Part shown: positions 4,452 to 32,180 of the stretch, piece by piece
Layout: every line of letters starts with the position of its first letter
Numbering within the stretch: position 1 is the stretch's first letter
Notes under the pieces: model-generated
What the model was told of the DNA's origin: nothing
What the model saw: only the letters and a program-made list of their open reading frames with translations
The model's database searches: none
Assembly (NCBI GenBank): GCA_030748575.1
Contig: JASMLR010000011.1
Location: 1 to 64,000, forward strand
Direction: 5' to 3'
DNA from: Phycisphaerales bacterium
GTDB lineage: Bacteria; Planctomycetota; Phycisphaerae; Phycisphaerales; SM1A02
Length of the DNA: 64,000 bases
Made by a program: the position numbers and the translations under genes

Positions 4452-4852
4452 TCCGAGCCAACTGGGGCAGGCGGATCGCTGGTGCGTCCGCCGGCTGATC
4501 GACCCAACCCTACGATGCGAATCCATCGGCTCCGAGCGATCGTCAGGGGCTGCCGCTTTGATGGCTTCAGCCCCGGTCGGACCATCGTCACGACCCGCAC
4601 AGGTACACGGTCCTGCCGCAGCATCCACGGGTCGCCGCGAGGGCGATGTGGTGGGTCCGGGAATCCGGGGCCCGAGGGGGCATTGGGCGGGTGGTCGCTG
4701 CATGGTGGGCTCACAAGCGGGGATAGGGCCCCCCTGCATCGACCGAATCGGCCCTCAACTTGACTGCCTCAAGGCAACGCCCGGGCGGGCGTCGGATCCC
4801 CCCGAGAGATACGTACCATGCTCATTCCGCAACGGATGGACCCACACTCCCC
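4452..4852. other. 401-bp divergent intergenic region
   Basis: Lies between the minus-strand PEP-CTERM operon and the plus-strand sulfotransferase gene, so it should hold promoters for both. I see no credible gene. Near the right end are a TTGACT (4760-4765), a small stem TGCC-TCAA-GGCA (4765-4776) and a perfect stem ACGCCC-GGGC-GGGCGT (4777-4792). These are about 60-90 bases before the sulfotransferase start, but no convincing -10 element accompanies them. Confidence 0.4.
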
Positions 4853-5587: not shown

Positions 5588-5818
5588 GGCCATCTGTTTC
5601 AAGAGAGGGCCCATGGCCAGCCGAACACCCAACCAGATCCGCTGCTTCTACCACACGTGCCTGACCAAATGCGACTCGAAGGTCATGCTGGCCGTGTTTC
5701 CGCGGTGGATGAACGTTGTCGGCGGGGGGGACAGCCACCTCAATCGTCGCATCGACTCCGATTCATGGGGTGGTATCGGAGGTTGCACGCCGCGAGTGGG
5801 ATACGCCTGAACACACCC

Positions 5819-6928
5819 ATGGGCCATCGTCGCATCCTGTTCCTGCTTCCGGATCTTCGCAATCCCGCCTACAAGGGTGGGATTCAGATGTTCAACAACT
5901 ACGTGCATCGGGCGATCACTGAACTCGGACACGATGTGAGCGTGATCGGCGTGAATGATCGGCCGGAAGACGCCGAACCAGGTCTCATTCCATGCAACAG
6001 GTGGCGGCGGACCCGAAAGGTCGTCGCTGCACTTCAGTTGATCTGGCAGATTGCGTTTCACCACCCAGATGTCGTGCTCTGCGGGCACTTGAACTTCGCC
6101 GCACTCTGTCGCCGGGTCTGCGGGTGGTTCGGGGTTCGGTACATCACCATCACCCATGGCATCGAGTTGTGGGATGCCCCGGCAAGCAAGGTTCGGGGCG
6201 CTGCGGGAAGCCACCGCATTCTCGCTGTGAGCCGATACACCAAATCGCTCAACCTCGATCTGCTTGACGGGTATGACCCTGATCATGTCGTGGTGTTCCC
6301 CAATACGTTTGATGAGGAACGGTTCAAACCGTCGCCGGTGCCAACCGATCTTCGAAGTCGCCTTGGACTCAACGCGTCCGACCGAATTGTGCTGTCGGTC
6401 GGGCGGCTGGCGTCGACAGAGCGGCTGAAGGGATACGACGAGGCCATTCTCGCCGTGGCCGAGGTGCGAAAGGTGATGCCGGAGGTGCGACTGGTCCTGG
6501 GCGGACGCGGTGACGATATGGACCGCCTTCGGCAGGTGGCGGATGGGTGCGGCCTCGGTGACGGCCTGGTCATGCCGGGGTTCATTGCGGAAGAGGACAT
6601 CGTGTCGCTTTTCAATCTGTGCGATCTGTTTGTGCTGCCGAGTCGGAAGGAAGGGTTCGGGATCGTCTTTCTGGAGGCGATGGGATGCGGCAAGCCGGTC
6701 ATCGGGGGCAATCGCGATGGTTCGATGGACCCGTTGTGTGACGGGACGCTTGGAGCGGCGGTCGATCCGGAGAATGTCGATGCGATCGCCGCGGCCATGA
6801 CTGAACTCCTGCGTGGAACGGCTCCGGCAACCCGATCGGACCCCGCCCATCTCAGGCGGGAGGTCGTGGACAAGTTCGGGTTTGCGAGGTTTCGAGACCG
6901 CCTCGCTGCCGTGCTCGACATGGTCTGA
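5819..6928 (+). CDS. GT4-family glycosyltransferase
   Basis: 369 residues, GT-B fold. The N-terminal acceptor domain begins RRILFLLPDL and has the early Gly-rich turn KGGIQMF typical of GT4. The C-terminal donor domain begins at SVGRL (about 200) and contains the E-x7-E motif KEGFGIVFLE (Glu278 and Glu286), which binds the nucleotide-sugar. It would transfer a sugar from a nucleotide donor to a growing surface glycan at the cytoplasmic face. The start at 5819 gives the normal GT4 N-terminus; 5588-5818 upstream has only a doubtful short frame. It is flanked by sulfotransferase-like genes, so the glycan is probably sulfated. Donor and acceptor specificity are not readable. Confidence 0.88.
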   Translation: MGHRRILFLLPDLRNPAYKGGIQMFNNYVHRAITELGHDVSVIGVNDRPEDAEPGLIPCNRWRRTRKVVAALQLIWQIAFHHPDVVLCGHLNFAALCRRVCGWFGVRYITITHGIELWDAPASKVRGAAGSHRILAVSRYTKSLNLDLLDGYDPDHVVVFPNTFDEERFKPSPVPTDLRSRLGLNASDRIVLSVGRLASTERLKGYDEAILAVAEVRKVMPEVRLVLGGRGDDMDRLRQVADGCGLGDGLVMPGFIAEEDIVSLFNLCDLFVLPSRKEGFGIVFLEAMGCGKPVIGGNRDGSMDPLCDGTLGAAVDPENVDAIAAAMTELLRGTAPATRSDPAHLRREVVDKFGFARFRDRLAAVLDMV

Positions 6929-6988
6929 TCCGGCATGACGTCTATGATGCGTGCCGATCTCAACTGCTCCGCCCTCCAAGGAACCCAC

Positions 6989-7624
6989 ATGTTGCCCAAG
7001 GCCATCTTCATCATCGGCGCCGAGAGCACTGGAAGTACGCTCGTTTCCCGCATCTGTGGCCACGTGTTGTGTGGCGCACCCATGGCGAAGGGGGAGAAGG
7101 CGTTGTGGGCCGATGAGCAGGGGAACGAAGTCTGGCACGTATCGCTTCCTTCGGGCGCCGCTGCCAGCTTTCCCGACATCGATCTTTGGATCGAGAAGTA
7201 CAAGGACACGCACGACATCCGGTTCATCCTGACTACCCGTGACATCACACTGTCCGAATACTCGAGGCGTGGCCGGTTCATGCGTCGGGGCGAAGCGGAA
7301 GTCAAGGACCAGTCTGCGAAGGCACGGGACATCATGTGCCACGCCATGACGCTCGGCTACCCGTGGCACATCGTTTCGTATGAGACGCTGATGTTCCTCG
7401 GCCAGCCGTACGTTGAGTTGATCTATGACTTCATCGGTGTCGAAAGCGACTTCGCGCCCTCGCTCCGCGATGGAAACCTCAAACGTCTTCAGGCCATGGG
7501 CCCCTGGGACTCGTTCACGCGGTGGCTGCGGCGCGCCTGGTTCACGGTCCGCGGTGGGCCCAACAAGCCACTGCCGGACGACACCCGGTTCCCTGCCGAC
7601 GAGCAACCGCCCGCCGCGACCTGA
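6989..7624 (+). CDS. Small sulfotransferase-like P-loop protein
   Basis: 211 residues, starting at an ATG six bases after AAGGA. A P-loop FIIGAESTGSTLVSRI lies at about 7-22 and a second conserved-looking segment FILTTRDITLSEYSRRGR at about 88-105. This is the spacing of the PAPS 5'- and 3'-phosphate sites of sulfotransferases. The second site lacks the usual R-N/D-P of the family (TTRD-ITL instead), so acceptor or even donor use may differ. The C-terminus has an Arg-rich amphipathic stretch (WLRRAWFTVR). It lies 60 bases after the GT4 gene in the same direction. Alternative: a sulfotransferase-fold protein without sulfotransferase activity. Confidence 0.65.
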   Translation: MLPKAIFIIGAESTGSTLVSRICGHVLCGAPMAKGEKALWADEQGNEVWHVSLPSGAAASFPDIDLWIEKYKDTHDIRFILTTRDITLSEYSRRGRFMRRGEAEVKDQSAKARDIMCHAMTLGYPWHIVSYETLMFLGQPYVELIYDFIGVESDFAPSLRDGNLKRLQAMGPWDSFTRWLRRAWFTVRGGPNKPLPDDTRFPADEQPPAAT

Positions 7625-8145: not shown

Positions 8146-9360
8146 ATGACCAGCAATCTTCCAAGGGCCGCGGCAGCGGCCGGTGCGATCTCTGCAGCTT
8201 CGCTGCTCTCCACCCCTGCGGGGGCGGACGTCCTGACCAGCTTTCACATGGTCGGACGCGCGGCCATCGCCGTTCAGGACCCCTCTGCCGCCATGGCGGA
8301 TGTTGACGTCAATGGCCTCGTTGGCGTGGACGACCTTCTGTACGTGATTGAGCAGTTTGGGAACGACTGCGCGGTGTCCAGTTGCCAGGCCGATGCTGAT
8401 GGTGACGGATCGGTAGGCATTTGGGACATCCTGCAGGTCATTGCACACTTTGGTGAAGTCATCCCGGAACATCTCGACGGCGAAGCCGATACACCGCTCA
8501 CCGGGACGCACCTGTGCGAGCAGAGTCGATACGCCGACGATCCCGTTTCCCTGGGTGAGGCAGGTGTTGTCAACGACGCATGGATGGTCAATGGGTATGC
8601 CGTCTATGCCAGCAAGAACATGAATGAGGATGAGTTTCTTGGCGCCACCGAGGCAGATGTGCGCGATGCGCTGGAGTCTTATCTCGAAGCGCGGCATGAT
8701 CTTGACCCGGCGACAAGCAACTACGTCATTCTTGACATCGAGCATCCGTACCACCCCAAGGACTTCGGGCGGTTTCTTGACCCATCGAACGCGTGGTACG
8801 ACCTGATGAAGTTCCATGAGGTCATCGACGCCTACAAGTTGCGGATCAGCGTTGCGCGTGATCTGCTGCCGAATGCGAGGTTGGGCCTGTTCGGCGTGAC
8901 GACCCCGCATCCATTTGGCAATCCCCTTCTGGAGGCGCAGATTGTCAGGCAGGATGGCTTCGAGGCGGCAGGGGCAGCCGGGCTATATGACGAGCTCGAT
9001 GTGGTCTGCCCGGTCATCTATCAACGATACGGGCCCAGCGACAGCCGGCATCACTTGCTGGAGCAGTACACCAGAATGGGTGCCGAGTCTGCCTTGGCAC
9101 TCCAGCGGACCGACGGAACGTCACTTGAAGTGATGCCCCTCATGTCGCTGGCCGTATTCAATGGTGGCTCGGCCGATCACAAGCTGCCGATCACCGTGGA
9201 GGATCTTGCAACGCAGATTGCCGTGCTGGAAGACCTCGGCTTTCAGGACTGGATGATCTGGGCTGGCAACGACACCATTGCGGATACCGACGTGCTCGTG
9301 ACGGACCACCTCCATGCACTGCTTGCCTACATGGAGGATCTGGCGTCCGGGGACATGTAG
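8146..9360 (+). CDS. Secreted dockerin + GH56-like hydrolase domain protein
   Basis: 404 residues. A signal peptide (about 1-28) is followed by two dockerin-type EF-hand repeats at the N-terminal side (DVNGLVGVDDLLYVI and DADGDGSVGIWDILQVI, about 52-102). A domain of about 270 residues follows. It carries LDIEHP (Asp197, Glu199), DVVCPVIYQRY and PLMSLAVFNG, and ends in strand/helix alternation. The D-x-E followed by a Pro resembles the catalytic D-x-E of GH56 hyaluronidases in a TIM-barrel context. That is a motif-level resemblance and not a family assignment. It is a clear paralog of the oppositely oriented gene 9361-10260, whose stop codon abuts this one. The ribosome site is weak. Confidence 0.65.
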   Translation: MTSNLPRAAAAAGAISAASLLSTPAGADVLTSFHMVGRAAIAVQDPSAAMADVDVNGLVGVDDLLYVIEQFGNDCAVSSCQADADGDGSVGIWDILQVIAHFGEVIPEHLDGEADTPLTGTHLCEQSRYADDPVSLGEAGVVNDAWMVNGYAVYASKNMNEDEFLGATEADVRDALESYLEARHDLDPATSNYVILDIEHPYHPKDFGRFLDPSNAWYDLMKFHEVIDAYKLRISVARDLLPNARLGLFGVTTPHPFGNPLLEAQIVRQDGFEAAGAAGLYDELDVVCPVIYQRYGPSDSRHHLLEQYTRMGAESALALQRTDGTSLEVMPLMSLAVFNGGSADHKLPITVEDLATQIAVLEDLGFQDWMIWAGNDTIADTDVLVTDHLHALLAYMEDLASGDM

Positions 9361-10260
9361 TCAGGGATTGGGTCGCAATGCGGCGAGTTCCGCATACCAA
9401 CTGCTGATCTGGGTGGAGGAGCCCGAGATGGTCGAGTCTCCGCTCCACAGAATGGCGGTGCGAATGCCCAATCGGTCAAGGAGTTCCAGCCGCTGGGCTG
9501 TCCCGCCAACATCCGCCGGCGTGCCATGGTCCACCGAGTTGCCATTGAAGATGGCAAAGCTCAGCAACGGAATGATCCGAGGCTGTGGCGTGACACCGGT
9601 GAGCAGCGAGCGGCAAGCTTCGATCGACTGCTCGGTCGCCCGGGCGATCGAGGCATACCCACGTTCGCCTGCGCCGAAACGCATGTACAGGACGGGGCAC
9701 ACTGCGTCAACGCCCGCAAGCAGCCCTTGACTCACGGCTGCCCGCTGCGCGCCGACCTGGTTGCGGAAGGATTCGCTGTCTTTGCCCTTCGGCGCGGGGC
9801 TTCCAAAGTCGTACAGGCAGATGACGGCGTTGGGGAGTGCCGCTCGGACAACGGCGACCCGCCGCTTGAAGCCCTCCACGACTGCTCGAAAGCGCCGCTT
9901 ACTCTCCTCAGGGCGTTCCTGATCGAGCAGGTGGGCGAGCCTGCTCAGCCGCTCCGGCCGCTCAATGTCGAGCACGACGACCGCTGTGGTGTCTGGGGTG
10001 AGTGCCGGGTGCCGCAGAAGGTACTTGGCAAGCAGCTCGGCCAGCTGCTCGTCGGTTTTCGCAATGAAAGCGTCGACGGTCGTCTGCTTGGGTGCCCCAA
10101 GTGCCCAGCCGGATATGAACCAGGCCCGGCCGGGTACCCAATCGCCTTCTGCGAAGGAGTTCTGCAAGCCGACAAGCAGCGATGGCCATGCGGCTGGCGG
10201 CTCCACCGGTGGCGCCATCCACATCGTCAATGCAAGCACGAGCAGTTTTGTTACACCCAT
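9361..10260 (-). CDS. Secreted GH56-like hydrolase domain protein, paralog
   Basis: 299 residues: a signal peptide-like start (GVTKLLVLALTMW) followed directly by the same domain as in 8146-9360 but with no dockerin repeats. Shared landmarks are VVLDIERP (Asp98, Glu100), DAVCPVLYMRF, IPLLSFAIFNGNSVDH and ILWSGDSTI. Conservation of the Asp-x-Glu pair in both copies suggests it is functional, perhaps as a glycoside hydrolase (inference). The start ATG overlaps the stop of the upstream sulfotransferase gene by one base (TGATG), so the two are coupled. A glycan-degrading or glycan-editing role beside sulfation genes would be consistent. No substrate can be read. Confidence 0.65.
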   Translation of the reverse strand: MGVTKLLVLALTMWMAPPVEPPAAWPSLLVGLQNSFAEGDWVPGRAWFISGWALGAPKQTTVDAFIAKTDEQLAELLAKYLLRHPALTPDTTAVVVLDIERPERLSRLAHLLDQERPEESKRRFRAVVEGFKRRVAVVRAALPNAVICLYDFGSPAPKGKDSESFRNQVGAQRAAVSQGLLAGVDAVCPVLYMRFGAGERGYASIARATEQSIEACRSLLTGVTPQPRIIPLLSFAIFNGNSVDHGTPADVGGTAQRLELLDRLGIRTAILWSGDSTISGSSTQISSWYAELAALRPNP

Positions 10261-11153
10261 CAGGTCGTTTCCGGGTCCCGGGCGAGTGACATTGCATCCG
10301 CCTTAGACCAGGGCCGGCCGCCCGGTGGCTCCGCCGGGTGGAGCAGCGGTGCAATGCGTTGCACATCATCCTCAGTAGCGTCAAGAATGGCCTGCACGGT
10401 CGACACGCTCGGCTTGATAACATCGGTCGCGGCCGTCCGCATCAGGCCGCGTTTGGCCGCACGTTTGAGCCATCGCGGTGTGAGCGGGCGGACGATCTTC
10501 CGATACAGCGGCGCATGGGCAACCCGGCGGCTGCCCTCCGTGTGAATCATCTTGCCCTTACTGGCATTGGCAATGGTGCCAGTTGCCACGAGATCAGGCA
10601 TTGGCTCGAGCCCGAGAAACGCCTGGATGTCCGCTGCGGTCGTGGCCCGATCGGTGATGTAGGACTCAAACTTGATAACCCGGATCTGATCGGTCCCGAA
10701 CGTCGCGATCCATGGTTCAAGTTGCGTGGCGTACCGGCTGTACTCGATCAGCAGGGGGTTGATCCGCACCGCCTCGTCCATGTCCGGAGTCTCAAGACCA
10801 GCCGCCACCAGGTGTCGATGGTGCGAACAGGCCCGCGAGACGGGCTCGCGGACAATGTACAGCACACGCACGTCGCTTCCGAGCAGCGACCGTGCCCGCT
10901 CCGCGGCGCCGGTCCACTGCGGCATCTGTGTGTAGTGCGTGGATGCTTCGAACGCGAGCTGGCCCGGCCGGCAATTCTGAAAGTGTCGCTCGTAAGCGGC
11001 CCGGCCTTCCGGTGTCAGGACATCGTCGCTTTTGAGATCCCCCGGCTCCTTGTCAAGGGGCTCGAAGATGTCCGGGTGCGTGGCGAGATCTTCGAACAGC
11101 GTCGTCGTTCCCGACTTCATGGCACCGATGATCAGAAACGATGGGAGTGTCAT
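10260..11153 (-). CDS. Sulfotransferase (NDST/Sulfotransfer_1-like)
   Basis: 297 residues. FLIIGAMKSGTTTLFEDLATHPDI near the N-terminus (about 6-29) is the classic PAPS 5'-phosphosulfate loop with its Lys-Ser-Gly-Thr-Thr. VLYIVREPVSRACSHHRHL (about 103-121) is the 3'-phosphate site with Arg and Ser. Length and motifs match the heparan-sulfate/NDST-like group found in bacterial sulfated-glycan loci. The start at 11153 puts the loop at residue 6-18 as in family members; upstream codons in frame are low-complexity. It is coupled to the hydrolase-like gene downstream (1-base overlap) and divergent from the flippase gene. It probably sulfates a surface polysaccharide unit in the cytoplasm. Confidence 0.9.
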   Translation of the reverse strand: MTLPSFLIIGAMKSGTTTLFEDLATHPDIFEPLDKEPGDLKSDDVLTPEGRAAYERHFQNCRPGQLAFEASTHYTQMPQWTGAAERARSLLGSDVRVLYIVREPVSRACSHHRHLVAAGLETPDMDEAVRINPLLIEYSRYATQLEPWIATFGTDQIRVIKFESYITDRATTAADIQAFLGLEPMPDLVATGTIANASKGKMIHTEGSRRVAHAPLYRKIVRPLTPRWLKRAAKRGLMRTAATDVIKPSVSTVQAILDATEDDVQRIAPLLHPAEPPGGRPWSKADAMSLARDPETT

Positions 11154-11310
11154 ATGGGGGCAGCGCCGTGTCGTTGACAGGGGGAGGTGGCGAACACCAA
11201 GTATAGCCCCCGCGGCGGCTGCTCCAGTTGGCGCGGCTGCTAGGATGCCGCCACATGAGCCGTCTGTGCCGAAGTCCGCATATCGCCCACGCCAGGCGCG
11301 GGGCCGCCGC

Positions 11311-12930
11311 ATGACGGAGTCACCCCGGCCGAACGTGTCGCGGAATCTGATTCTCTTCTTCGGATCCAACACGACTCGAACTGCGTTGCTGATGGTTGTG
11401 GGGTTCATCCTCACACCGCTCCAGATCGCCGCTTTCGGCCTGGTGCTCTTCGGGCTCTTTCAACTCATCAATCAGTTGTCCATGGCGGTGACCTCGCCGA
11501 TTCGCTCGGCGGTGATCAGGACGCTGGTCAAGGCGATCTTTGAGTCGAAGGCGAGCGAGGGCCAGCGGGGTGTCGAGCGTCAGTTCACCTGCTGCGTGGC
11601 CATCGTGTGGTCGGTGGCGGGGTTGATGGTGGCGACTGCCGCAATCTGCCTGATATTCCTTCCAAACCTCATGAACTTCCCCGACTGGGCGACCAACGCC
11701 GTTCGGCTCGCATTTGGAAGTCAGGCCATTGTCTTTGCCGCGATCATGTGCACGTCTCCCTGGCTCGCGCTCTATCTGGTTCGACACAGGCCGCTGGCGT
11801 TCAATGCCGACCTGACCGTCATGCGGACCATCGATCTGATCGCCTTTCTCATTGCGATCGGCTCTTCAGAAGGTGCCAGCCAGGTGTTCGGCGTGTTCGT
11901 TGTCTCAAGAATGGGTCTCGTTGTGCTTCACTGCCTGACTCGGCTCGTCTTGACGTGGCGGCAGGTGCCCGGGGCGAGATTCAGGTTCCGTTCTCTGGAC
12001 CGGGCAACCATCAAGCGGCTCGCGCACGTTGGATCACTGACGATGGGCCAGCCGGTTGGCAACATCAGCTTCTTCTTTCTCGACAACTACCTGCTCAACA
12101 TCATCTTCGGCCCCATTTACAACGCCATTTACGGCATCGTCACTCAGTTGCGTGGATACGCTCGGCGGGTCGGCGCTCAGGGGTTCGCGGGCATGGAGGC
12201 CACCGTCGCCGACATGCATGAGCAGGGTGGGCACGAAACAAACATTCGAGCCATGTTGGCCGTCAGCCGTATCACCTCCGGCGTGATGATGTTGTCGACC
12301 GGCATCGTCGCCGTGTTCTTTGGTCCCCTGGTCGACCTGTGGCTCGGGGGAAGACTGCGCAAGGATGAGGCGTTGCTTGCCGTGATGCCCTATCAGGAGG
12401 CAATCGACCTTGCATGGGGCATGCTGGCGTTGCTGCTCGGTGGTGGCATTCTTCTGGAAGTGGCGGGGGCCGGGTCCAGGTTTCTGTTTGGCATGGGACA
12501 CATCAAGCGGTACGCCGGCATCATGTACGCCGCGGGGCTGACCAAGTTTCTCTTGTCGATGTCCATTCTCGTCGGCATCTTCGCCTGGCTTGGTGATGCG
12601 GAGCCGGATCCCCATGTGGTCCTGCTGTTCCCCGCGGCGACGCTGCTGGTGCAACTGATCTACTTCGGGCTCGTCTTCCCCAAACGTCTGATTCATCTGA
12701 CCGGTGTCCCTGGCCGCACCTACCTGTGGCAGTCTTTCGGTCGTCCGGCTGCCGCGGCTGTGCTGCCGCTGGCCATTGGCGGCGCCATGGTGCTGCTCAT
12801 CGACGCCTGGACTTGGCCGCTGCTTGTCGTCATGCTCGGGGTTGTCGGATCCGTCTCCGCGGCCTGCTTCCTTGGTATTCTCATGCAACCGGATGAGCGA
12901 CGGCGGATTCTGAGCTTGATTCGCCGATGA
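11311..12930 (+). CDS. Wzx/MATE-like polysaccharide flippase
   Basis: 539 residues with about 12-14 hydrophobic segments along the whole length and an N-terminal segment (NLILFFGSNTTRTALLMVVGFILTPL) typical of the polysaccharide-export branch of the MOP/MATE exporters. It would flip lipid-linked oligosaccharides across the inner membrane. A further hint is the polar residues in the early helices near ITSPIR-like loops (VTSPIRSAVIRT). The start at 11311 is the first in-frame ATG giving a normal N-terminus, and the ribosome site is poor. It is followed 80 bases later by an O-antigen ligase/polymerase-like gene, which supports a Wzx/Wzy-type assembly line for the sulfated glycan suggested by the flanking genes. 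Confidence 0.82.
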   Translation: MTESPRPNVSRNLILFFGSNTTRTALLMVVGFILTPLQIAAFGLVLFGLFQLINQLSMAVTSPIRSAVIRTLVKAIFESKASEGQRGVERQFTCCVAIVWSVAGLMVATAAICLIFLPNLMNFPDWATNAVRLAFGSQAIVFAAIMCTSPWLALYLVRHRPLAFNADLTVMRTIDLIAFLIAIGSSEGASQVFGVFVVSRMGLVVLHCLTRLVLTWRQVPGARFRFRSLDRATIKRLAHVGSLTMGQPVGNISFFFLDNYLLNIIFGPIYNAIYGIVTQLRGYARRVGAQGFAGMEATVADMHEQGGHETNIRAMLAVSRITSGVMMLSTGIVAVFFGPLVDLWLGGRLRKDEALLAVMPYQEAIDLAWGMLALLLGGGILLEVAGAGSRFLFGMGHIKRYAGIMYAAGLTKFLLSMSILVGIFAWLGDAEPDPHVVLLFPAATLLVQLIYFGLVFPKRLIHLTGVPGRTYLWQSFGRPAAAAVLPLAIGGAMVLLIDAWTWPLLVVMLGVVGSVSAACFLGILMQPDERRRILSLIRR

Positions 12931-13010
12931 AGCCGTGATGGAGCCGCGCATGGATGCCGGTCGCCGCAAGAGGAGAGCACGAGGCGTGCGTAGGGCGAGA
13001 CGCTCCTGAC

Positions 13011-14363
13011 ATGGACAAACTGGACCTATATCTCGAGATCGTGCCGCTGCCGGTTCTGGCACTCGTCGCTGTCATTGCATGCATCGTCTTTGCGATGATG
13101 CCTGCCAATCATCGGCCGTTTATCCTGATCTGGTTTCTTCCCTCATGGCTGTTCCTCTCGAAGTGTCTCGATCTCGGCGTGGTGCAGGCGGCAACCAAAC
13201 TTTCCTCGGGGCTGCTTCTGCTCATGATCGCGGTGGCGGGCTTTCTGCGGCCGGGCGAGCGGCGGCACATGCCGGGAGTGGTGTGGTTGTACGTCATTGC
13301 CGGCGTCTGGATGATGGCCTGCGTGATGGGGACCTCCAATCAGATGGACATGCTCCTGCTCCGTGGCCAGGGGATCATGATGGCACTTGCGGCCATTTCT
13401 ATCGTCGCGTGCCTGAGAGACCTTGAGGATCTCGCACGTTTCATGCGAGCGATGGCCGTCGGGACGACGGTGGCCCTGATCATTCCCGCGTCGTCCATCG
13501 TGTTTCAAGGATCGGGCGCCTTCCTGGCGGGCATGCACCGGCTCGAACCCTGGGGCGCCGCCTCGAATCTGATCGGTATTACATTCGCCATTTCGGGGGC
13601 GATGCTGCTGTATCTGACACTCACCTCGAAGAGCAGCTTCTGGCGAGCCTTCTGCATGGCCGGCTTCGCCGCGAGCATTGGGTTTGCTTACCTGACTGGA
13701 TCTCGCATGAGCTTCATGTCGCTCGGCGTCATCAGTCTGCTCATGCTCATTCCGATGGTCAAGCGGCCGGGTATGTTGCTCGGCGGCGCCTTGATAGCGG
13801 CCATCCTGGTGCCGATCATCACGGGCGTTGAAGAGGGGGCGGGCGGTCGCCTGACAGAGCTGCACACCAGTGGACGATTCGGGATTTGGGCCGACTATCT
13901 ACGTTTGTTCATCCAGCGTCCACTCGGCCTGTTTGGGACGAGTGGCAACAACGGTCTCATGGACAACATCATTGGCAATCATGCGCACAACGCATGGGTG
14001 GACATGCTGTTTGTGGGCGGATTCCCCTTGTTCTTGATGCTGGCGATTCCCGCATACATGGCCGGCAAGACCATCTGGCGGACGTGGCGGCTCCGCAAAC
14101 TCTGGCAGAGGCCAGAAGATCAGATGACGATTCACACGTCCGCCTCAATCATGGCCGCCATGTTCCTGCAGAGCATGACGAATCAGGCGCTCTACTACCC
14201 GACGTTTACGTGGGCCTTTCTGGGCATGGTCTTCTTCATGTTCTTCATCTCGTTCCGGGAGGACGTGGACTACATGGAGGCGGACGCCTGGGCGCAGGCG
14301 GAGGCATGGGACGCGTACGAAGAAGCGGTCGCCGCCGAGAACTGGGAACCTGAGAAGTCCTGA
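13011..14363 (+). CDS. O-antigen ligase / Wzy polymerase-like membrane protein
   Basis: 450 residues with about 10-12 transmembrane helices. A periplasmic-loop segment at about 288-330 has the Wzy_C/WaaL signature layout: SGRFGIWADYLRLF, then RPLGLFGTSGNN, then NHAHNAWVDML (His-Ala-His-Asn). In this family the conserved Arg and the His of the H-N motif serve in glycan transfer from undecaprenyl-diphosphate. The C-terminus is acidic and soluble (EADAWAQAEAWDAYEEAV). The start at 13011 precedes the first helix directly. Polymerase and ligase members cannot be told apart by sequence alone. It lies in the same direction as the flippase, and its stop is two bases from the stop of the convergent signalling operon. 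Confidence 0.82.
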   Translation: MDKLDLYLEIVPLPVLALVAVIACIVFAMMPANHRPFILIWFLPSWLFLSKCLDLGVVQAATKLSSGLLLLMIAVAGFLRPGERRHMPGVVWLYVIAGVWMMACVMGTSNQMDMLLLRGQGIMMALAAISIVACLRDLEDLARFMRAMAVGTTVALIIPASSIVFQGSGAFLAGMHRLEPWGAASNLIGITFAISGAMLLYLTLTSKSSFWRAFCMAGFAASIGFAYLTGSRMSFMSLGVISLLMLIPMVKRPGMLLGGALIAAILVPIITGVEEGAGGRLTELHTSGRFGIWADYLRLFIQRPLGLFGTSGNNGLMDNIIGNHAHNAWVDMLFVGGFPLFLMLAIPAYMAGKTIWRTWRLRKLWQRPEDQMTIHTSASIMAAMFLQSMTNQALYYPTFTWAFLGMVFFMFFISFREDVDYMEADAWAQAEAWDAYEEAVAAENWEPEKS

Positions 14364-14365
14364 AC

Positions 14366-15634
14366 TCAGCCGGTGCGTCGAATGGCGAGGATGGACCGAT
14401 CGTCCTGCGGTGGTTGGTCGTCACGGAACCGCTCGATGTCCGATCGGAGATGCTCCAGCGTTGCCTCAAGCGAACCGACAGGATCGGCGCGAAGCATGTC
14501 GATGAGGCGATCTGTTCCGTACATCTGGCCATGTTCGTCCATGGCTTCGAAGATGCCGTCCGTTGGAATCGCCAGTAGGTCGCCGGGATTCAATGAGACT
14601 TCACGCACGCCCTCAAGCGGAAGATGGTCCAGCACTCCCAAGGGTGGGACGTCTGCGTCGAGTTCTTCGACCGATCCGTCGGCCCGAAGCAGCAGATTCG
14701 GACCGTGCCCTGCGGTAATGGTGTCGATGACTCCTCTCTGCGTATCGAGTCGACCGAACCACGCTGTCACAAACTGCATGGACGACGTGTCCTGCCAGAG
14801 CTGCTGGTTGAGTTGTTGCACGAGGTCAACTATGGCAGCGTCGAGCCGTACAGCCATGCGAAGCATGGACCGGACCTGCGTGACCGAAATGGCAGGCCCG
14901 ATGCCGTGGCCGGTCGCGTCTCCAACCATCAGCATGGCGCCGCCCTCGACCGCTACGGCGTCGAAGGCGTCGCCCCCGGTTGCGTCCGCTGGCATGCTCC
15001 AACCGTGGATCTCCCAATTGCCCAGGTCCGGAAACGTATCCGGGAAGGTCGCGGCCTGGATCTTCCTGGCGATATCGAGATCGTGTTGGAGCTTGACGAG
15101 TTCGAGCCGGTCAGCGAGCAGTCTCGACCGCCGCATGGCGACGGCGGATTGTGCCGCCAGTGCGGTGGCGATGCGTTCACAGTCTTCCCCGAACGGTCCT
15201 TCCCGCCGGTTGAGAACCTGCGCGACGCCGACCAATTCGTCGACATCGGCCGCGACCAGCGGAATGGTCAGGATGCTGCGGGTGCGGTAGCCGGTCTTCT
15301 CGTCGACCCCGCGGTAGAAACGATCGTCTTCGTAGGCGTCGGGAATGTTGATGATCTGCCGCGTCTGCCCGGCCGCGCCGGCGATGCCGGTTCCGAGCGG
15401 GACGCGTATGTCCCCGAGCGCGTCCATCAGGACGCCATCGGGGCCATGTCCCGCCACGGCGACAAGTTCGTCGTCCTTGGCGTTGTACTGGAACACCGTG
15501 GCTCGCTCGGCGTCCAGAATGTCTCGAAGGCAGTCAGCGACGCGATGTATGACGGCTTGCGGGTCATCGGTGGCGCCAAGGATGCGGCTCACTTCCAGAA
15601 TGCAGTCGACCTGCTTCGGAGAGATATCGGGCAT
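14366..15634 (-). CDS. GAF-domain PP2C (SpoIIE/RsbU-type) phosphatase
   Basis: 422 residues. A GAF sensor domain (about 20-165; DILDAERATVFQY, then GTGIAGAAGQTRQIINIPDAY) is followed by a short coiled linker and a SpoIIE-type PP2C phosphatase domain (about 200-420). Metal-site segments are GGDAFDAV, MVGDATGHGIGPA, PTDGIFEAMD and DDRSILAIR, all Asp-containing as in active enzymes. Such proteins dephosphorylate anti-sigma antagonists or similar regulators. The ATG at 15634 is preferred to an upstream TTG at 15670 that would overlap the cyclase gene. It lies 25 bases downstream of the CHASE2 cyclase and is the last gene of the operon. The GAF ligand is unknown. Confidence 0.88.
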   Translation of the reverse strand: MPDISPKQVDCILEVSRILGATDDPQAVIHRVADCLRDILDAERATVFQYNAKDDELVAVAGHGPDGVLMDALGDIRVPLGTGIAGAAGQTRQIINIPDAYEDDRFYRGVDEKTGYRTRSILTIPLVAADVDELVGVAQVLNRREGPFGEDCERIATALAAQSAVAMRRSRLLADRLELVKLQHDLDIARKIQAATFPDTFPDLGNWEIHGWSMPADATGGDAFDAVAVEGGAMLMVGDATGHGIGPAISVTQVRSMLRMAVRLDAAIVDLVQQLNQQLWQDTSSMQFVTAWFGRLDTQRGVIDTITAGHGPNLLLRADGSVEELDADVPPLGVLDHLPLEGVREVSLNPGDLLAIPTDGIFEAMDEHGQMYGTDRLIDMLRADPVGSLEATLEHLRSDIERFRDDQPPQDDRSILAIRRTG

Positions 15635-15659
15635 CGGGCCATGGTACTGGCCGGCTCGG

Positions 15660-18296
15660 CTACTTCTCAATCAGCCGGATGGCGGTGGGGAAGGGGTCCG
15701 CCGCGCCCCGGACCAACGTTGCGAGTCGCTGGGTCAAAGCGGTTGGCCCTGGCGGGGCTTCCAGGGTGGCGAGCGCCAACTCGGCAGCGGCTCTGTCTCC
15801 GGCTCGAATGGCGGCGGCCAGTGCCGAGGCACCCTCGGCGGACGACCCCTCGTCCGGTGTCGTCCAGACATTCACGACGCCGTCCCTGCCCACGACCTGC
15901 AGCGGTCCGACTTCAATCAGCGGCACGGTTTCGCCGGCTGCGCGGCACGTCCGGTTGTCGACGAGAATGGACGTGCCGAGCTGCTTGTTGGCCGACTCCA
16001 GCCTCGCCGCGAGATTGGCGACGTCTCCGATCACCGTGTAGTCGTTGAGGTTCGGCGGGGCGCCGCAATCGCCAACGAGTGCCTCGCCAGTCGCAATCCC
16101 GATGCGAAGGCCCACCCTGGGCAGATGGTCTTCCAATCGCGTGTTGATCCGGCTCATGAACGCCTGACAGTCCAGGGCGGCGCGAATCGCCAGCGTGCCC
16201 TGATCGGGCTGCTCGCCAAAGGCCGACCAGAACGCCAGAAACCCGTCGCCGAGAAACTTGTTGAGGTAGGCCTTCTGGTCGGTCACGCATTCGGTCAGAC
16301 CGACCATGCATCGGTTGAGCAGTCCGACCGTCTCTTCGGGCCCGAGTCGCTCGCTGATGCCTGTAAACCCGGCGAGGTCACCGAACATCACGCACACTTC
16401 TCGCCGGACGCCACGCATGCTCAGGGCATCCGGGTCGCGGGCCAACTCGTCCACAAGCGCCGCCGGAACGCGGGCCCGAAACTGCCTGGTGACGCGGTGT
16501 TTCTCACGCTGGACGAGCACGGCGCGAACGCTCGTGCCGCTCGCCCAGGACAGCGTGATGGCGACCAGCGGGGAGGCCGCGGGCAGCACCAGGCCGAAGC
16601 GGCCGAACAGCAGCACCAACAGGCCCGTCCACGCCCCGAGAACGATGATGGCGGCCGCCGTGCCCGGCCACGGTCCGAGCGCCGCGACGAGCAGCGCAAC
16701 GATCAGACCGAGTATGGCTGCAGAGGCGGGTGACCACCATCGAGGGCCTTCGCGCAGCACGCGGTTCTGCAGAATCATGTCCGCAACGGCCGCGTGCACC
16801 ATGACTCCGGGTGTTCGCGGGCCGGCTGCCGTTGGAACGAAGTCCGCGATGGTGCCGGTGGCGGTCCAGCCTATGAAGACGAGCCGCCCTTCGACGGCCG
16901 CGGTGAGTGTTGCTTCGGACGCTTCAATGCCTGTGGCAATCGCGGCAATGTCCTCGTCCAGAAGTCGCCAGTTGAACATCTGGGTGTAGGCGGCGATCGT
17001 CGCGTCATCCAGGCCGTCGGTGGCGGCGTCGAGTGACGCCCGGTCGGTGATGCCATCGAGCGAGAACTCGAGTTCGCCTCGCACTTCATCCAGCAGGCCT
17101 GGGTCGCTCCAGTCGGTGACCTCCGGCACATCGCCGCCTCGAACAACCTGCAATACCGAGCGGGTGATTTCCGCTCGAGCGGCTTGCTGCGATTCAAGTT
17201 CCCGGCGTGCCCGAGCCAGTTCGACGATTTCGCCGATGGAGAGATGCCCGGCAAACCGCGGGTCGTCGGCATGGCGACGATGGAGGTCGGGCCACTCCAT
17301 GCCCATGTCGCCACGCGGCCAGCACACGGTCATGGCGCCATCACTGAGCGGAACCTCCACGTCGCCAATCACGACCATGTCCGGCGAGACGTCCAACTGG
17401 CCCGCTGTGCCGAGGTGGTGCATGGCTGCCGCCACGCCGAGCGAGGGCACGATGCGTCCGTCGCCCACGGGTTGCGTGGGGACCATGTGGCGAATGCCAC
17501 CGTCCCGGCTCCGCCTCACGATGTGTACGTAGCCCGAGCCGCCTGCTGCTTCCCCCAGCGTGGCAAGCGGGAAGCGATCACCGGCTGATCCCGGGTGCTG
17601 CGAGTCGCCGGGCAAGGTTCCCGGAAGCGCGCGTCTGCCGTGCTGCTGGCGGTGCGCCGCTGTAATGAGGGGCTCCAGTTGGCCCTGAAGCGGCCCGGCG
17701 GCGGCTCGAAGTTCTTCGGGCGTTGCGTGCGCGGCTGAGGTAAAGACGGCCTGCCGCCGGAGCAGGAGCAGGGTGTCGGCAATGGCGTCAGCCGCCTGCG
17801 GCATCGTGTCGGCGGGGTTGGCTGACAGGTCCCCCCGCAGCACCGCAAGGGCGGCCTCAAGTTGCTCCGGTGTTCCGCCCGCCGAGGCCCAGCGGTGCGC
17901 AAGTTCGTCGGGCATCAGCAGGACGCCCAGAATGTCGCTCGGCCTCAGGGCCGCAGCGAGCGCTTCGTCTTCGTGTGGGTCGCGGACCCGCGGGTCGGCA
18001 AAGTCCAGATCGATGGCCACGGTTCTGGCGCCAGCCCGGTGCAACTCGTCAAGGGCATCCGCGACAGCCGTACGTGGCCACGGCCAGCCGCCGAGCCGCT
18101 CAAGTGCCCAGTCGTCGATGTCCACCATCACGATGTCGCTGGACATTGGCTCGGCGTTCCGAGGCAGCCACGCCTGCTCAAGGTCGAGCATGCGTTGATT
18201 CCACCCGACAAACCCGCCCGCGCCGTCGATGAGAACGACGAGCAGGGTTGCGAGTAGGGCCCAGATCAGGATTTGGGGGTCGGCTTTACGAATCAC
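15660..18296 (-). CDS. CHASE2-domain class III adenylate/guanylate cyclase
   Basis: 878 residues. An N-terminal membrane anchor (about 9-28) is followed by a large extracytoplasmic CHASE2 sensor (about 50-510; begins IVMVDIDDWALERLGGWPWPR). Three transmembrane helices (about 515-590) and a class III cyclase domain (about 630-810) complete it. Metal-binding Asp640 (MFGDLAGFT) and Asp684 (FLGDGFLAFW) are present. So are the Lys before FLGDG, the Asp of NDYTVIGD and the Asn/Arg of ANLAARLE, so it should be active, probably as an adenylate cyclase. It follows the FecR-domain gene by 16 bases. CHASE2 cyclases next to FecR proteins are a known pairing. Likely role: sensing an envelope signal and making cAMP. 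Confidence 0.92.
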   Translation of the reverse strand: MIRKADPQILIWALLATLLVVLIDGAGGFVGWNQRMLDLEQAWLPRNAEPMSSDIVMVDIDDWALERLGGWPWPRTAVADALDELHRAGARTVAIDLDFADPRVRDPHEDEALAAALRPSDILGVLLMPDELAHRWASAGGTPEQLEAALAVLRGDLSANPADTMPQAADAIADTLLLLRRQAVFTSAAHATPEELRAAAGPLQGQLEPLITAAHRQQHGRRALPGTLPGDSQHPGSAGDRFPLATLGEAAGGSGYVHIVRRSRDGGIRHMVPTQPVGDGRIVPSLGVAAAMHHLGTAGQLDVSPDMVVIGDVEVPLSDGAMTVCWPRGDMGMEWPDLHRRHADDPRFAGHLSIGEIVELARARRELESQQAARAEITRSVLQVVRGGDVPEVTDWSDPGLLDEVRGELEFSLDGITDRASLDAATDGLDDATIAAYTQMFNWRLLDEDIAAIATGIEASEATLTAAVEGRLVFIGWTATGTIADFVPTAAGPRTPGVMVHAAVADMILQNRVLREGPRWWSPASAAILGLIVALLVAALGPWPGTAAAIIVLGAWTGLLVLLFGRFGLVLPAASPLVAITLSWASGTSVRAVLVQREKHRVTRQFRARVPAALVDELARDPDALSMRGVRREVCVMFGDLAGFTGISERLGPEETVGLLNRCMVGLTECVTDQKAYLNKFLGDGFLAFWSAFGEQPDQGTLAIRAALDCQAFMSRINTRLEDHLPRVGLRIGIATGEALVGDCGAPPNLNDYTVIGDVANLAARLESANKQLGTSILVDNRTCRAAGETVPLIEVGPLQVVGRDGVVNVWTTPDEGSSAEGASALAAAIRAGDRAAAELALATLEAPPGPTALTQRLATLVRGAADPFPTAIRLIEK

Positions 18297-18312
18297 GCTG
18301 CGGGGCAGCGTA

Positions 18313-19863
18313 TCACGGACACCATGGACAATCGTCGGGCGGCAGCGCGAGATTGCCCTGTGCGTTCTGCGGGTGCTGAAGCCCCTGCCCGTACGCCGTG
18401 AGGCCGGGTTGCCCGTAGTAGTCGTTGTAGATCACGTAGTTCATGGCGTTTGCAAACGCCTCGCGGCACACTTCGATCTTCTCACCGTTCTCGTTGAACG
18501 TCGTGACACAGAACTCGTTGACGATCGAGAGCATGGCGCGGAGATCCTCCGATCCAGTGAACGGCTGTCCGCTCCACTGTTCGTCGCCATAGTTGAGAAT
18601 GGCGCCGTACATCTCAGGAAGAACCGAATCGCCGTTGGCCAGTTCGGTTCCGAACGGGATGACCAGAAACGGCCCGGCGTTCTCGCCCTCGCCGAGGTCT
18701 TCGATGTACTGGGCCCGAGACGAGTCGAACCACCCGTTATGCCAGAGACCTTCGGCGTCCTGATGCCGCGTGTCGTGAAAGAGCGCCCCTTCAAAGACTG
18801 ACGCAATGCGGTGCCCGCCCGAATCGTACGGGTCGACGCTTGAAGGCACGTACTGGAGTTTCATGTCCCAGTACAAACCCGTCGCGACGGCGCCGCGGTC
18901 CTCGGGAAGCACAACGCCATTCGGGCCGAAGTACCACGAGAACCCGTCCTGAAGGAACGGGTCACCGAACTCCTCCTCCAGGATCTCGTCGTTGATCGCC
19001 TGCTGCTGGTCGGCAAGGAGTACGCGAACGGATTGGTTGATCGGGTCTCCGCTGGAAACGGCTTGTGTTGTCTGGTCCGGAGCGTCCTCGCGATCCTGAG
19101 ATTCAGTGGCCTGAAGCGGAGCTGGCCCAGCGCTTTCGAACGCCTGCGCTGCGGCTGGATCCGGCGAGCGTTCTGTTGACATCGCCTCGCCCGACATCAT
19201 GTGGGCGATCTTGCTTCCGTAGTACCGCATGGCGATGGCGTTCATGGCATTGGACCGCGAGCCAAAGATCTGCGTTCCCTGCAGGGCGTTGTGTGACACT
19301 GCCATGCCCGTGCCGCGGACGGCCAGAGCGCCGGCGGGAGTGAGGACGGAAAAGTCGTTCGTCAAGCCCACCTTGCCGACCTGAACATCGGTTCTGCCTC
19401 GCTGCACCTGGACCGTGGTCCGGAGCGTGTCGCCAGCATGCACCATCTGGGGAAGTGTGACGCGGCTTCCGCTGTCAACCAGAATGGTCGCGTTGATGCC
19501 CACGCGAAGCATCATGAATGATCGAAGTCCCGTGCGGATCATGGCGCCGGGTTGAAGGACGTGGTCCTTTGCGGCAGCAGTCCAGTCGGCCTCTGCGTTC
19601 GGGCGCCACTGCACCTTGCCCTCCACCTCCATGACGACGGCGCGAAGGACGCGTGTTTCGCCCTCGGGCAGTTCCTTTGCTGCTTCGAGCGCGATGGCTT
19701 TGAGCGCGGCAAGGCGTTGCTGGATGGACTGCCTTGCTGAGGGGGCGTCCGGCTGCAGCGTCGCCTGCGGCGTGGCTGTTTCGATGGGGGCATTGTCCTG
19801 GGCGGCGGCGGTCGCGGCGAGGGCAAGTATGCAGAGCGGGGTCACGAGGGGTCGATGGGTCAT
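18313..19863 (-). CDS. Secreted FecR-domain protein
   Basis: 516 residues. A signal peptide (about 1-21, ending AAAQ) is followed by a FecR-type domain at about 70-200: VEGKVQWRPN, then LQPGAMIRTGLRSFMMLRV, then VQRGRTDVQVG and VLTPAGALAVRGTGMAV. The C-terminal half (about 280-510) is Asp/Tyr/Trp-rich with no family I know and ends in a Cys pair (DDCPWCP). The ATG overlaps the stop of the upstream lipoprotein gene (ATGA). FecR-like proteins relay signals from outer-membrane partners; here the partners encoded in the same operon are an outer-membrane barrel, a lipoprotein and the CHASE2 cyclase. The idea that it is the periplasmic input to the cyclase is inference from this order. Confidence 0.85.
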   Translation of the reverse strand: MTHRPLVTPLCILALAATAAAQDNAPIETATPQATLQPDAPSARQSIQQRLAALKAIALEAAKELPEGETRVLRAVVMEVEGKVQWRPNAEADWTAAAKDHVLQPGAMIRTGLRSFMMLRVGINATILVDSGSRVTLPQMVHAGDTLRTTVQVQRGRTDVQVGKVGLTNDFSVLTPAGALAVRGTGMAVSHNALQGTQIFGSRSNAMNAIAMRYYGSKIAHMMSGEAMSTERSPDPAAAQAFESAGPAPLQATESQDREDAPDQTTQAVSSGDPINQSVRVLLADQQQAINDEILEEEFGDPFLQDGFSWYFGPNGVVLPEDRGAVATGLYWDMKLQYVPSSVDPYDSGGHRIASVFEGALFHDTRHQDAEGLWHNGWFDSSRAQYIEDLGEGENAGPFLVIPFGTELANGDSVLPEMYGAILNYGDEQWSGQPFTGSEDLRAMLSIVNEFCVTTFNENGEKIEVCREAFANAMNYVIYNDYYGQPGLTAYGQGLQHPQNAQGNLALPPDDCPWCP

Positions 19864-20516
19864 TCGTTGTTCTCACCTTCCCCGGCACGCTCGTCCTGGT
19901 CCGAGTCTGGCTCGGAAGGGGGAGCGGCCGGTGTGCCGGGCGACGCGTCCGTAGGCGGCGCTGGCGGCACCGCCGCCTGGGCCGCGCGAGCAGCCCAGGC
20001 GTGATCGATGGCCTGCCGTTGCTCGACGGCGCCGAGCAACGCAATGAATTCGGCCCCACTCAGGGCCTCGTGCTCAGTTATGCCGGGAATCAGTCCCATG
20101 TGAACCAGTTCTCTGGTTGCGTAGCGAGAATTCAGCCCGAAAATCCGCATGGACAGGCCACCCTGCACATCCAGAATGTGGCAGACACAGACCGCAATGA
20201 AGCCCATCTGGGCCGATTCCGTGGCTGGAGGCGGGGTTTCGGTGAGCCAGCCGGCTTCCCGCGCGGCCTGAATCCGGGCGTCCCACCCGTCTGCGTGTGG
20301 CTCGCGGCCTGCGAGCAGAAGGAGTCCGTGCAGGGCGTCGTCATTGGTTGTGACGGGCTGCGTCTCCAATGCGTCCCAGAAGTCCAGCGAGTCGTCGGCC
20401 TCTGGAAATGCCGCCGCGGCCGGGGTGTCGAGCGTCGTGCGAGTCGACAGGCCGCATCCCGCCGAAAGTGCGGCTGCGCACAGGACGGAGGTGAGCAGGG
20501 CGCACTCAGAACGCAT
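19860..20516 (-). CDS. Lipoprotein, unknown
   Basis: 218 residues. The lipobox is LSAGC at about 15-19, so it is a predicted lipoprotein. The mature part is Ala/Glu-rich with a compact middle section (IAVCVCHILDVQGGLSMRIFGLN) and a Pro/Asp/Glu-rich tail (about 175-215). I recognise no family. The ATG at 20516 has a GGAGG site eight bases upstream that lies inside the 3' end of the preceding barrel gene, and the start overlaps that gene by 11 bases. Its stop overlaps the FecR gene start by four. Such linkage argues that it works with the barrel and the FecR protein in one envelope assembly. Confidence 0.75.
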   Translation of the reverse strand: MRSECALLTSVLCAAALSAGCGLSTRTTLDTPAAAAFPEADDSLDFWDALETQPVTTNDDALHGLLLLAGREPHADGWDARIQAAREAGWLTETPPPATESAQMGFIAVCVCHILDVQGGLSMRIFGLNSRYATRELVHMGLIPGITEHEALSGAEFIALLGAVEQRQAIDHAWAARAAQAAVPPAPPTDASPGTPAAPPSEPDSDQDERAGEGENNE

Positions 20517-32061: not shown

Positions 32062-32180
32062 GGGGGGCTCCGGCAGGCCTGACTGAGATAAAGCAGGATA
32101 ACAGGATCTTATTTGGTGCCGCTCTTGCGAGGCAATCGCAATTGAGGATATCATCCCACTTTCATCAGGAGGCGCTGCCG

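What the first reader, a model, noticed from the sequence alone, without database searches (positions are those of the whole stretch)
8146..10260. Tail-to-tail paralogs sharing a hyaluronidase-like D-x-E motif
Two secreted proteins on opposite strands share LDIE-(H/R)-P, D-x-V-C-P-V-(I/L)-Y and S-x-A-(V/I)-F-N-G segments. Their stop codons directly abut (9360/9361). One carries N-terminal dockerin repeats, the other none. GH56 hyaluronidases use a D-x-E followed by W-R-P in a TIM barrel; the local pattern here is similar. They sit among sulfotransferases, so they could be glycan-active enzymes of a new family that edits or degrades a sulfated polysaccharide. The inverted-duplication layout is also unusual.
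Basis: partly seen in the sequence, partly recalled or inferred. Interest (0 to 1): 0.6.

Follow-up and report, generated by a model that had tools for sequence, protein, structure and literature searches.

The report
Hyaluronidase-like enzymes beside polysaccharide polymerase genes
Two neighbouring genes of a planctomycete bacterium make secreted-looking proteins whose predicted shape matches animal and bee-venom hyaluronidases, and their relatives repeatedly sit next to genes for building and sulfating polysaccharide, which points to trimming enzymes for a home-made sulfated glycan.

Summary
In detail: genes A (8146-9360, +) and B (9361-10260, -) are paralogues (30% identity, E 5e-40) with abutting stop codons. 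Neither reaches a Pfam or NCBIfam cut-off. The GH56 guess holds as distant homology and fold: AlphaFold2 models (pLDDT 95, 92) are seven-stranded barrels, and the six best PDB entries on realignment are GH56 hyaluronidases (Z up to 20.0 for A, 18.8 for B; next about 14). The family profile aligns to bacterial PF01630 relatives with score 111 (best of 200 shuffles 23). The GH56 Asp, Glu, Tyr227 and Trp301 positions are kept in 25 of 25 rows; A has Phe at Tyr184. Of 31 genomes with the window's Wzy-type polymerase (244 searched), 27 have a GH56-like gene within 5 kb (0.24 expected) and 26 an ST1-type sulfotransferase nearby. B overlaps ST1 by one base. Best reading: exported GH56-like endo-hexosaminidases that size, trim or release a sulfated polysaccharide made by the same locus. 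Activity, substrate and role are inferred, and 58 of 86 genomes with a GH56-like hit lack this polymerase. The tail-to-tail layout is incidental: the pair is old, and head-to-head in two other genomes.

The parts
8146..9360 (+). Gene A: N-terminal dockerin-like repeats plus GH56-like domain (404 aa); export by eye
8299..8448 (+). Dockerin-like two-loop region of A (residues 52-101), below Pfam cut-off
8497..9357 (+). GH56-like seven-stranded barrel domain of A
8734..8742 (+). D197-I-E199 of A, aligned with GH56 Asp111/Glu113 (bee numbering)
8890..8892 (+). F249 of A at the position of GH56 Tyr184
9019..9021 (+). Y292 of A, aligned with GH56 Tyr227
9259..9261 (+). W372 of A, aligned with GH56 Trp301
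9361..10260 (-). Gene B: GH56-like domain without dockerin (299 aa); export by eye
9961..9969 (-). D98-I-E100 of B, the GH56-like catalytic pair
9811..9813 (-). Y150 of B at the position of GH56 Tyr184
9685..9687 (-). Y192 of B, aligned with GH56 Tyr227
9445..9447 (-). W272 of B, aligned with GH56 Trp301
10260..11414 (-). ST1 sulfotransferase (PF13469/PF00685); its stop overlaps B's listed start codon
4760..5587 (+). ST2 sulfotransferase (PF03567)
5657..6928 (+). Glycosyltransferase, GT4 type
6935..7624 (+). ST3, sulfotransferase-like (PF13469, 24.6 bits, below its cut-off of 27)
11308..12930 (+). Membrane protein, flippase-like by eye and position; no Pfam match; start uncertain
12954..14363 (+). 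Wzy-type polymerase/ligase (PF04932), the gene that GH56-like genes accompany in other genomes
14366..15670 (-). GAF-SpoIIE phosphatase, conserved neighbour
15660..18296 (-). CHASE2-nucleotide cyclase, conserved neighbour
18313..19863 (-). FecR-like protein (23.0 bits, just under its cut-off of 24), conserved neighbour
20506..21966 (-). Alginate-export-type protein (PF13372)

Best explanation
A and B are exported GH56-like glycoside hydrolases that act on the polysaccharide made by their own locus. Shown by computation: a predicted seven-stranded GH56-type barrel, distant homology to GH56, kept catalytic positions, and repeated linkage to a Wzy-type polymerase and a sulfotransferase. Inferred: export; cleavage next to a 2-acetamido sugar with retention through an oxazoline-type intermediate (Glu as acid/base, Asp assisting the N-acetyl group, as in GH56); and a role in setting chain length, freeing or reshaping the sulfated polymer once it reaches the cell surface, as PgaB and PelA do for PNAG and Pel. 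A may be positioned by its dockerin-like end, and B may be co-translated with the sulfotransferase (inferred from the gene overlap).
For: Fold: GH56 entries are ranks 1-6 for both models in VIA (Z 20.0 to 15.7 for A, 18.8 to 15.6 for B; next 4h41 at 14.1 and 14.0). Homology: hhalign score 111 against the bacterial GH56 set A6 (best of 200 column shuffles 23, reversed 12), and A6 against bee hyaluronidase 1fcq E 1.2e-36; A6, which contains no window protein, finds gene A and nothing else in the window's genome at E up to 10 (E 1.7e-10). Site: D, E, Y, W in 25 of 25 rows. Linkage: GH56-like gene within 5 kb of Wzy in 27 of 31 genomes (my count), 0.24 expected; ST1-type sulfotransferase in the fetched stretch in 26 of the 31, and in 0 of 12 other loci examined. 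B-ST1 overlap in the window and in G007. In the 5 same-genus genomes read (G001, G003, G004, G005, G008), SpoIIE and cyclase are kept while this Wzy and A/B are both missing.
Against: No activity or substrate is known. A has Phe where GH56 has a Tyr that PMC13080975 (passage) calls strictly conserved. No direct sequence match to GH56 in Pfam, NCBIfam or PDB. Foldseek TM-scores are modest (0.53-0.64 for GH56 rows, rmsd 4.4-7.6). 4 of 31 Wzy genomes lack a close GH56-like gene (G908, G810, G841, G088). 58 of the 86 genomes with a GH56-like hit have no Wzy hit at 1e-20, so the family is not tied to this polymerase alone. No window gene scanned points to an amino sugar. No cohesin was found in the genome for the dockerin.
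Confidence: 0.6

Rival explanations
1. A and B are scavenging enzymes that digest glycosaminoglycan-like or algal sulfated polysaccharides outside the cell for food.
For: They look secreted, GH56 enzymes degrade hyaluronan and chondroitin, and planctomycetes were enriched on chondroitin sulfate in PMC12555021 (passages). 58 of 86 genomes with a GH56-like hit have no Wzy hit at 1e-20.
Against: In 27 of 31 Wzy genomes the neighbour is a polymerase, and in 26 of 31 an ST1-type sulfotransferase is near; both are for making polymer. No sulfatase, lyase or uptake gene appeared among the 17 window proteins scanned with Pfam, A and B included; the rest of the window was not scanned.
Confidence: 0.2
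2. A and B mainly transfer rather than hydrolyse: they re-link or attach the polymer (transglycosylation), for example to a surface acceptor.
For: PMC11669647 (passage) notes transglycosylation by GH56 enzymes; linkage to the Wzy step fits a late assembly role.
Against: No positive sign of an acceptor came up, though none was searched for; fold and residues do not separate the two.
Confidence: 0.12
3. The proteins, or A at least, are non-catalytic and only bind the polysaccharide.
For: A has Phe at the Tyr184 position; the dockerin-like part suggests a scaffold role.
Against: D, E, Tyr227 and Trp301 positions are kept in 25 of 25 rows and in all 14 rows of A8, where identity to the first row falls to 13%, which pure binding would not need; L027, which passes the PF01630 cut-off, also has Phe there.
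Confidence: 0.08

Closest known systems
GH56 hyaluronidases (bee venom 1fcq, wasp Ves v 2 2atm, human Hyal-1 2pe4, PH-20 9jub)
   Same: Barrel fold (seven strands as in the bee enzyme), best structural matches, D-x-E plus Tyr and Trp of the active site at aligned positions.
   Different: 9-13% identity in the structural alignments, no W-R-P after D-x-E, Phe for Tyr184 in A, extra conserved FN(G/A)xS and Y-x-R motifs, dockerin-like part in A, found in a bacterial polysaccharide locus.
PgaB C-terminal domain (GH153), PelA, PslG, AlgL: hydrolases or lyases inside polysaccharide synthesis systems
   Same: A glycan-cutting enzyme that belongs to the polymer's synthesis system; the PgaB C-terminal domain is also a structural match (Z about 11).
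   Different: Different enzyme families and sites, and no sulfotransferase known to me in those systems (recalled). PslG and AlgL were seen in search listings only.
Bacterial PF01630 proteins of the same order (the 8 rows of A6: L027, L028, L040, L046, L048, L050, L051, L052)
   Same: Same catalytic positions; several have the same Wzy and ST1 neighbours.
   Different: All 8 reach the PF01630 cut-off; A and B do not.
BT_0435 of Bacteroides thetaiotaomicron (4h41)
   Same: Next structural match after GH56 (Z about 14).
   Different: Titled a putative alpha-L-fucosidase; not examined further.

Membership tests
GH56 (PF01630 hyaluronidase) | Match to the curated PF01630 model over its cut-off | tested here: not met
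   No PF01630 row for A or B at E up to 10; 0 matches at E 0.001 in the genome. Relatives: the 8 rows of A6 pass; A/B orthologues, L032, L037 and L042 show none, and L067 has 15.0 bits against 23.2.
GH56 (PF01630 hyaluronidase) | Seven-stranded (beta/alpha) barrel of the bee hyaluronidase type | tested here: met
   Seven strands of 3 or more residues in each model; GH56 chains on top in Foldseek and VIA. Predicted models, not solved structures.
GH56 (PF01630 hyaluronidase) | Catalytic Asp/Glu (111/113, bee numbering) | tested here: met
   Aligned through A6; 25 of 25 rows. Residue roles from PMC13080975, passages.
GH56 (PF01630 hyaluronidase) | Tyr227 and Trp301 | tested here: met
   25 of 25 rows.
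GH56 (PF01630 hyaluronidase) | Tyr184 | tested here: inconclusive
   Tyr in B, Phe in A (not met for A); among 25 rows Tyr, Phe or Trp, Phe also in L027, which passes PF01630.
GH56 (PF01630 hyaluronidase) | Hydrolysis of hyaluronan or chondroitin | not testable with these tools
   Needs purified enzyme.
Dockerin type I (cellulosome-like) | Match to PF00404 over cut-off | tested here: not met
   13.6 bits against 22.9 for A; orthologues 15.0 (L023) and 16.7 (L024) and 14.0 (L055), all below.
Dockerin type I (cellulosome-like) | Cohesin partner in the genome | tested here: inconclusive
   No PF00963 match at E up to 1 in a draft genome of 97% completeness; divergent cohesins would be missed.

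The most novel reading that the evidence does not exclude
Phycisphaerales planctomycetes make a hexosamine-containing, sulfated, glycosaminoglycan-like polymer by a Wzy-type route and carry their own hyaluronidase-superfamily enzymes, swapped together with the polymerase as a cassette, to size and release it. GH56, best known from animals and venoms, would then have a bacterial branch whose work is polymer making rather than breakdown.
Probability: 0.25. Interest if true: 0.82.

Novelty: new variant of a known kind. Interest (0 to 1): 0.62.

Why it matters
It gives a testable function to an unannotated protein family, adds a bacterial branch to a fold known mainly from animal and venom enzymes, and marks loci that may make sulfated glycosaminoglycan-like polymers. 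A GH56-like gene next to wzy and a sulfotransferase is a handle for finding such loci. The review read in passages (PMC11669647) sorts the microbial hyaluronidases of its tree into PL8, PL16, GH16, GH84, PL29, GH88, PL17, PL33 and PL35, not GH56. Paper searches for GH56 with bacteria, planctomycetes, prokaryotes or PF01630 listed no title or opening abstract about a bacterial GH56 enzyme; that covers this open-access library and those words only. CAZy itself could not be consulted.

Tried and rejected
Direct PDB sequence searches with A, B and the 8-row profile A2 gave no GH56 hit; the link needed the bacterial intermediates. Pfam DUF4015 scores for A (12.6 bits against 27) are far below cut-off and were not used. 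First-look hits L005/L029 and L006/L030 (E 6.5e-4 and 8.7e-4), by eye a flagellar-switch-like and a succinyl-CoA-synthetase-like protein, were dropped as chance matches.

The genes that replace A/B in same-genus genomes were tested for kinship: S1 (G001, G003, G008) and S2 (G004, G005) show none to A4 or A6 beyond shuffles. S3 (G004, G005) against A4 gives probability 68%, score 42 (20 shuffles, best 19.5), but nothing against A6, so it is left open.

A mere general barrel likeness was considered and rejected: many unrelated barrels appear, but at Z 14.1 or less against 15.6-20.0 for GH56. Recent inverted duplication was rejected: B-type genes of the four genomes form a clade (99/100) that excludes the A-type genes (77/87, not strong). 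That tree warns of two long branches meeting above this level, so deeper order is not claimed.

Linkage bias: 10 of the 31 Wzy genomes supplied rows to profile A8 or A9. Of the 21 that did not, 17 have the neighbour; leaving out G007 and G061, whose arrangement was already known, 15 of 19 (my count). G843 is taken to be record UBA3158, already used as L055, because contig lengths agree (11893). The ST1 profile has 5 rows from the 31; of the other 26 genomes, 21 have a hit. Fetched stretches differ in length and some end at contig ends, so ST1 absence in G042, G843 and G840 means little; G909 and G810 also lack it. The 12 other loci without ST1 are not a random background. The 0.24 expectation assumes random placement and uses genome sizes and hit counts that I entered by hand.

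Full report
WHAT IS THERE. Genes A (8146-9360, +) and B (9361-10260, -) are ORFs at the stated places and paralogues: 30% identity over 256 residues, E 5e-40. Their stop codons abut. The window lies on a 71.7-kb contig of a 2.38-Mb draft genome; at E 0.001 B finds only B and A there. The four loci with named records are MAGs called Phycisphaerales bacterium. Around the pair lie two sulfotransferase genes over Pfam cut-off (ST2 4760-5587, ST1 10260-11414), a sulfotransferase-like gene (ST3, below cut-off), a GT4 glycosyltransferase, a Wzy_C-type polymerase/ligase, a SpoIIE phosphatase, a CHASE2-cyclase, a FecR-like protein (just below cut-off) and an alginate-export-type protein. The membrane protein 11308-12930 has no Pfam match and is called flippase-like by eye. 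With ORF starts as listed, B overlaps ST1's stop by one base; in G007 the same two genes overlap by four bases (L053 8956-9909 and 9906-10910).

HOMOLOGY TO GH56. Neither A nor B matches a Pfam family over cut-off, and direct PDB searches find nothing convincing. Searching relatives with A gave weak hits (E 7.8e-5 to 7.8e-4) to other proteins. Three of these were scanned: L027 and L028 match PF01630 Glyco_hydro_56 at 4.8e-23 and 4e-28, L032 does not. A profile of eight PF01630 proteins of this order (A6) finds bee hyaluronidase at 1.2e-36, and the wasp enzyme, human Hyal-1 and PH-20. The A/B family profile (A4, nine rows) aligns to A6 over 238 columns with score 111. The A-type rows alone score 106, the B-type rows 77; the best of 200 shuffles is 23 and the reversed control 12. 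In the other direction A6, which holds no window protein, finds in the window's genome gene A only (E 1.7e-10, all matches up to E 10 asked for).

FOLD. AlphaFold2 models built only from window and sequences reach mean pLDDT 95.2 (A) and 92.2 (B); each has seven strands of three or more residues. In Foldseek the best entries are GH56 (A: ranks 1-5, E 3.3e-10 to 5.8e-8; B: ranks 1-6, E 3.4e-9 to 1.5e-6), with modest TM-scores (0.53-0.64 on the query). In VIA-align the six GH56 entries are ranks 1-6 for both: A against 1fcq Z 20.0, rmsd 3.4, 256 aligned; B against 1fcq Z 18.8, rmsd 3.3, 255 aligned. The next entry, 4h41, has Z 14.1 and 14.0; GH164 chains follow near 12 and PgaB chains near 11. 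GH56 enzymes of the bee type have seven strands (PMC13080975 and PMC12254123, passages).

ACTIVE SITE. PMC13080975 (passage) lists Glu113, Asp111, Tyr184, Tyr227 and Trp301 (bee numbering) as key GH56 residues. Through A6 these map to E199, D197, F249, Y292 and W372 of A, and by the A/B alignment to E100, D98, Y150, Y192 and W272 of B. In 25 aligned family members D, E, Tyr227 and Trp301 are the same in 25 of 25; the Tyr184 position is Tyr, Phe or Trp. In the 14-row alignment A8 only six columns are invariant: these four residues and two prolines. By the secondary-structure strings they sit in or just after strands 3, 4, 5 and 7; I could not measure geometry. The A/B group has its own fixed motifs (Y-x-R and FN(G/A)xS, 11 of 11 rows). 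The W-R-P of animal GH56 (recalled, and seen in the 1fcq line) is absent.

THE PAIR. A-type and B-type genes lie side by side in four genomes: tail-to-tail in the window genome and G007 (gap 142 bases in G007), head-to-head in G042 and UBA3158. Wzy, SpoIIE and cyclase genes go with them in all four, and FecR in three; in G007 the fetched stretch ends inside the cyclase. The tree puts the B-type genes, with a gene of G909 that lies beside Wzy, in one clade (99/100) and the A-type genes in another (77/87), so the duplication is older than these genomes. The exact abutting of stops is therefore incidental.

LINKAGE TO POLYMER SYNTHESIS. The window's Wzy protein has a homologue (E 1e-20) in 9 of 61 genomes, own included. 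In 9 of 9 a GH56-like gene lies near it: adjacent in seven, within 3 kb in the window genome and G007. Four of those GH56 genes had been found beforehand with PF01630 alone (G061, G066, G070, G074). In 244 genomes of the order, the GH56-like profile A8 hits 86 at 1e-5 and the Wzy profile A9 hits 31 at 1e-20. From those coordinates I count a GH56-like hit within 5 kb of Wzy in 27 of 31; random placement would give 0.24. The exceptions are G908, G810, G841 and G088 (hit 9 kb away). The other 58 genomes with a GH56-like hit have no Wzy hit at that threshold, so many family members live elsewhere. Reading the 31 loci, an ST1-type sulfotransferase is in the fetched stretch in 26, and in 0 of 12 other loci examined in the same script. 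In five same-genus genomes that lack A/B and this Wzy (G001, G003, G004, G005, G008), SpoIIE and the cyclase are kept and other genes stand beside them, some with dockerin or dockerin-like repeats and, in G004, a different Wzy_C-like gene below cut-off. The polymerase and the GH56-like pair thus look like one exchangeable cassette (inference).

HOW IT PROBABLY WORKS. By GH56 precedent (PMC13080975 and PMC12254123, passages) the Glu would act as acid/base and the Asp would assist the N-acetyl group of the sugar being cut, so a hexosamine in the chain is predicted; this is inference. [quoted passage not shown] The simplest reading is that A and B do such processing on a sulfated polymer. Feeding on outside glycans, transfer activity and pure binding remain possible.

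LIMITS. All structural evidence is predicted. Linkage counts come from draft genomes and from profiles partly built on the same loci (held-out counts in Tried and rejected). Contig ends hide neighbours in several genomes. The broader family is also found away from Wzy, so its members need not share one role. Export was judged by eye.

Noticed in passing
L056 5424-8786 (G007): A 1120-aa protein joins a trypsin-like protease domain (PF13365), a dockerin-like stretch (by eye) and a C-terminal GH56-like domain of the same family as A.
   Followed up: partly
L082 6784-10575 and L083 6534-10252 (G067, G079): Three GH56-like genes in tandem next to a weak Wzy match (2e-17 and 3e-15).
   Followed up: partly
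L077 2889-6216 and L075 8139-11485 (G004, G005): Beside SpoIIE, where the window has its own cassette, another pair lies: one protein with a dockerin-type stretch and one without, each with a D-x-E. The two are alike (94%); the second has a possible remote link to A/B (68%).
   Followed up: partly
L073, L074, L076: In G001, G003 and G008 the place holds a protein with dockerin-like repeats (by eye) and no Pfam match where scanned, beside an unrelated membrane-type protein.
   Followed up: partly
L084 12468-13607, L070 4752-6023, L067 4547-5713, L068 4510-5595: An Mrp/NUBPL-type ParA ATPase gene lies near the GH56-Wzy pair in four genomes.
   Followed up: no
L066 9740-10690 (G012): The GH56-like gene beside Wzy carries an in-frame TAG, so it may be decayed or mis-sequenced.
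   Followed up: no
window 502-1605, 32142-33182: Other proteins with dockerin-like ends (20.0 bits, below cut-off, for the first; second by eye) although no cohesin was found in the genome.
   Followed up: partly
window 14366-19863: A SpoIIE phosphatase, CHASE2-cyclase and FecR-like block beside the polysaccharide genes is kept across genomes and may regulate them.
   Followed up: partly
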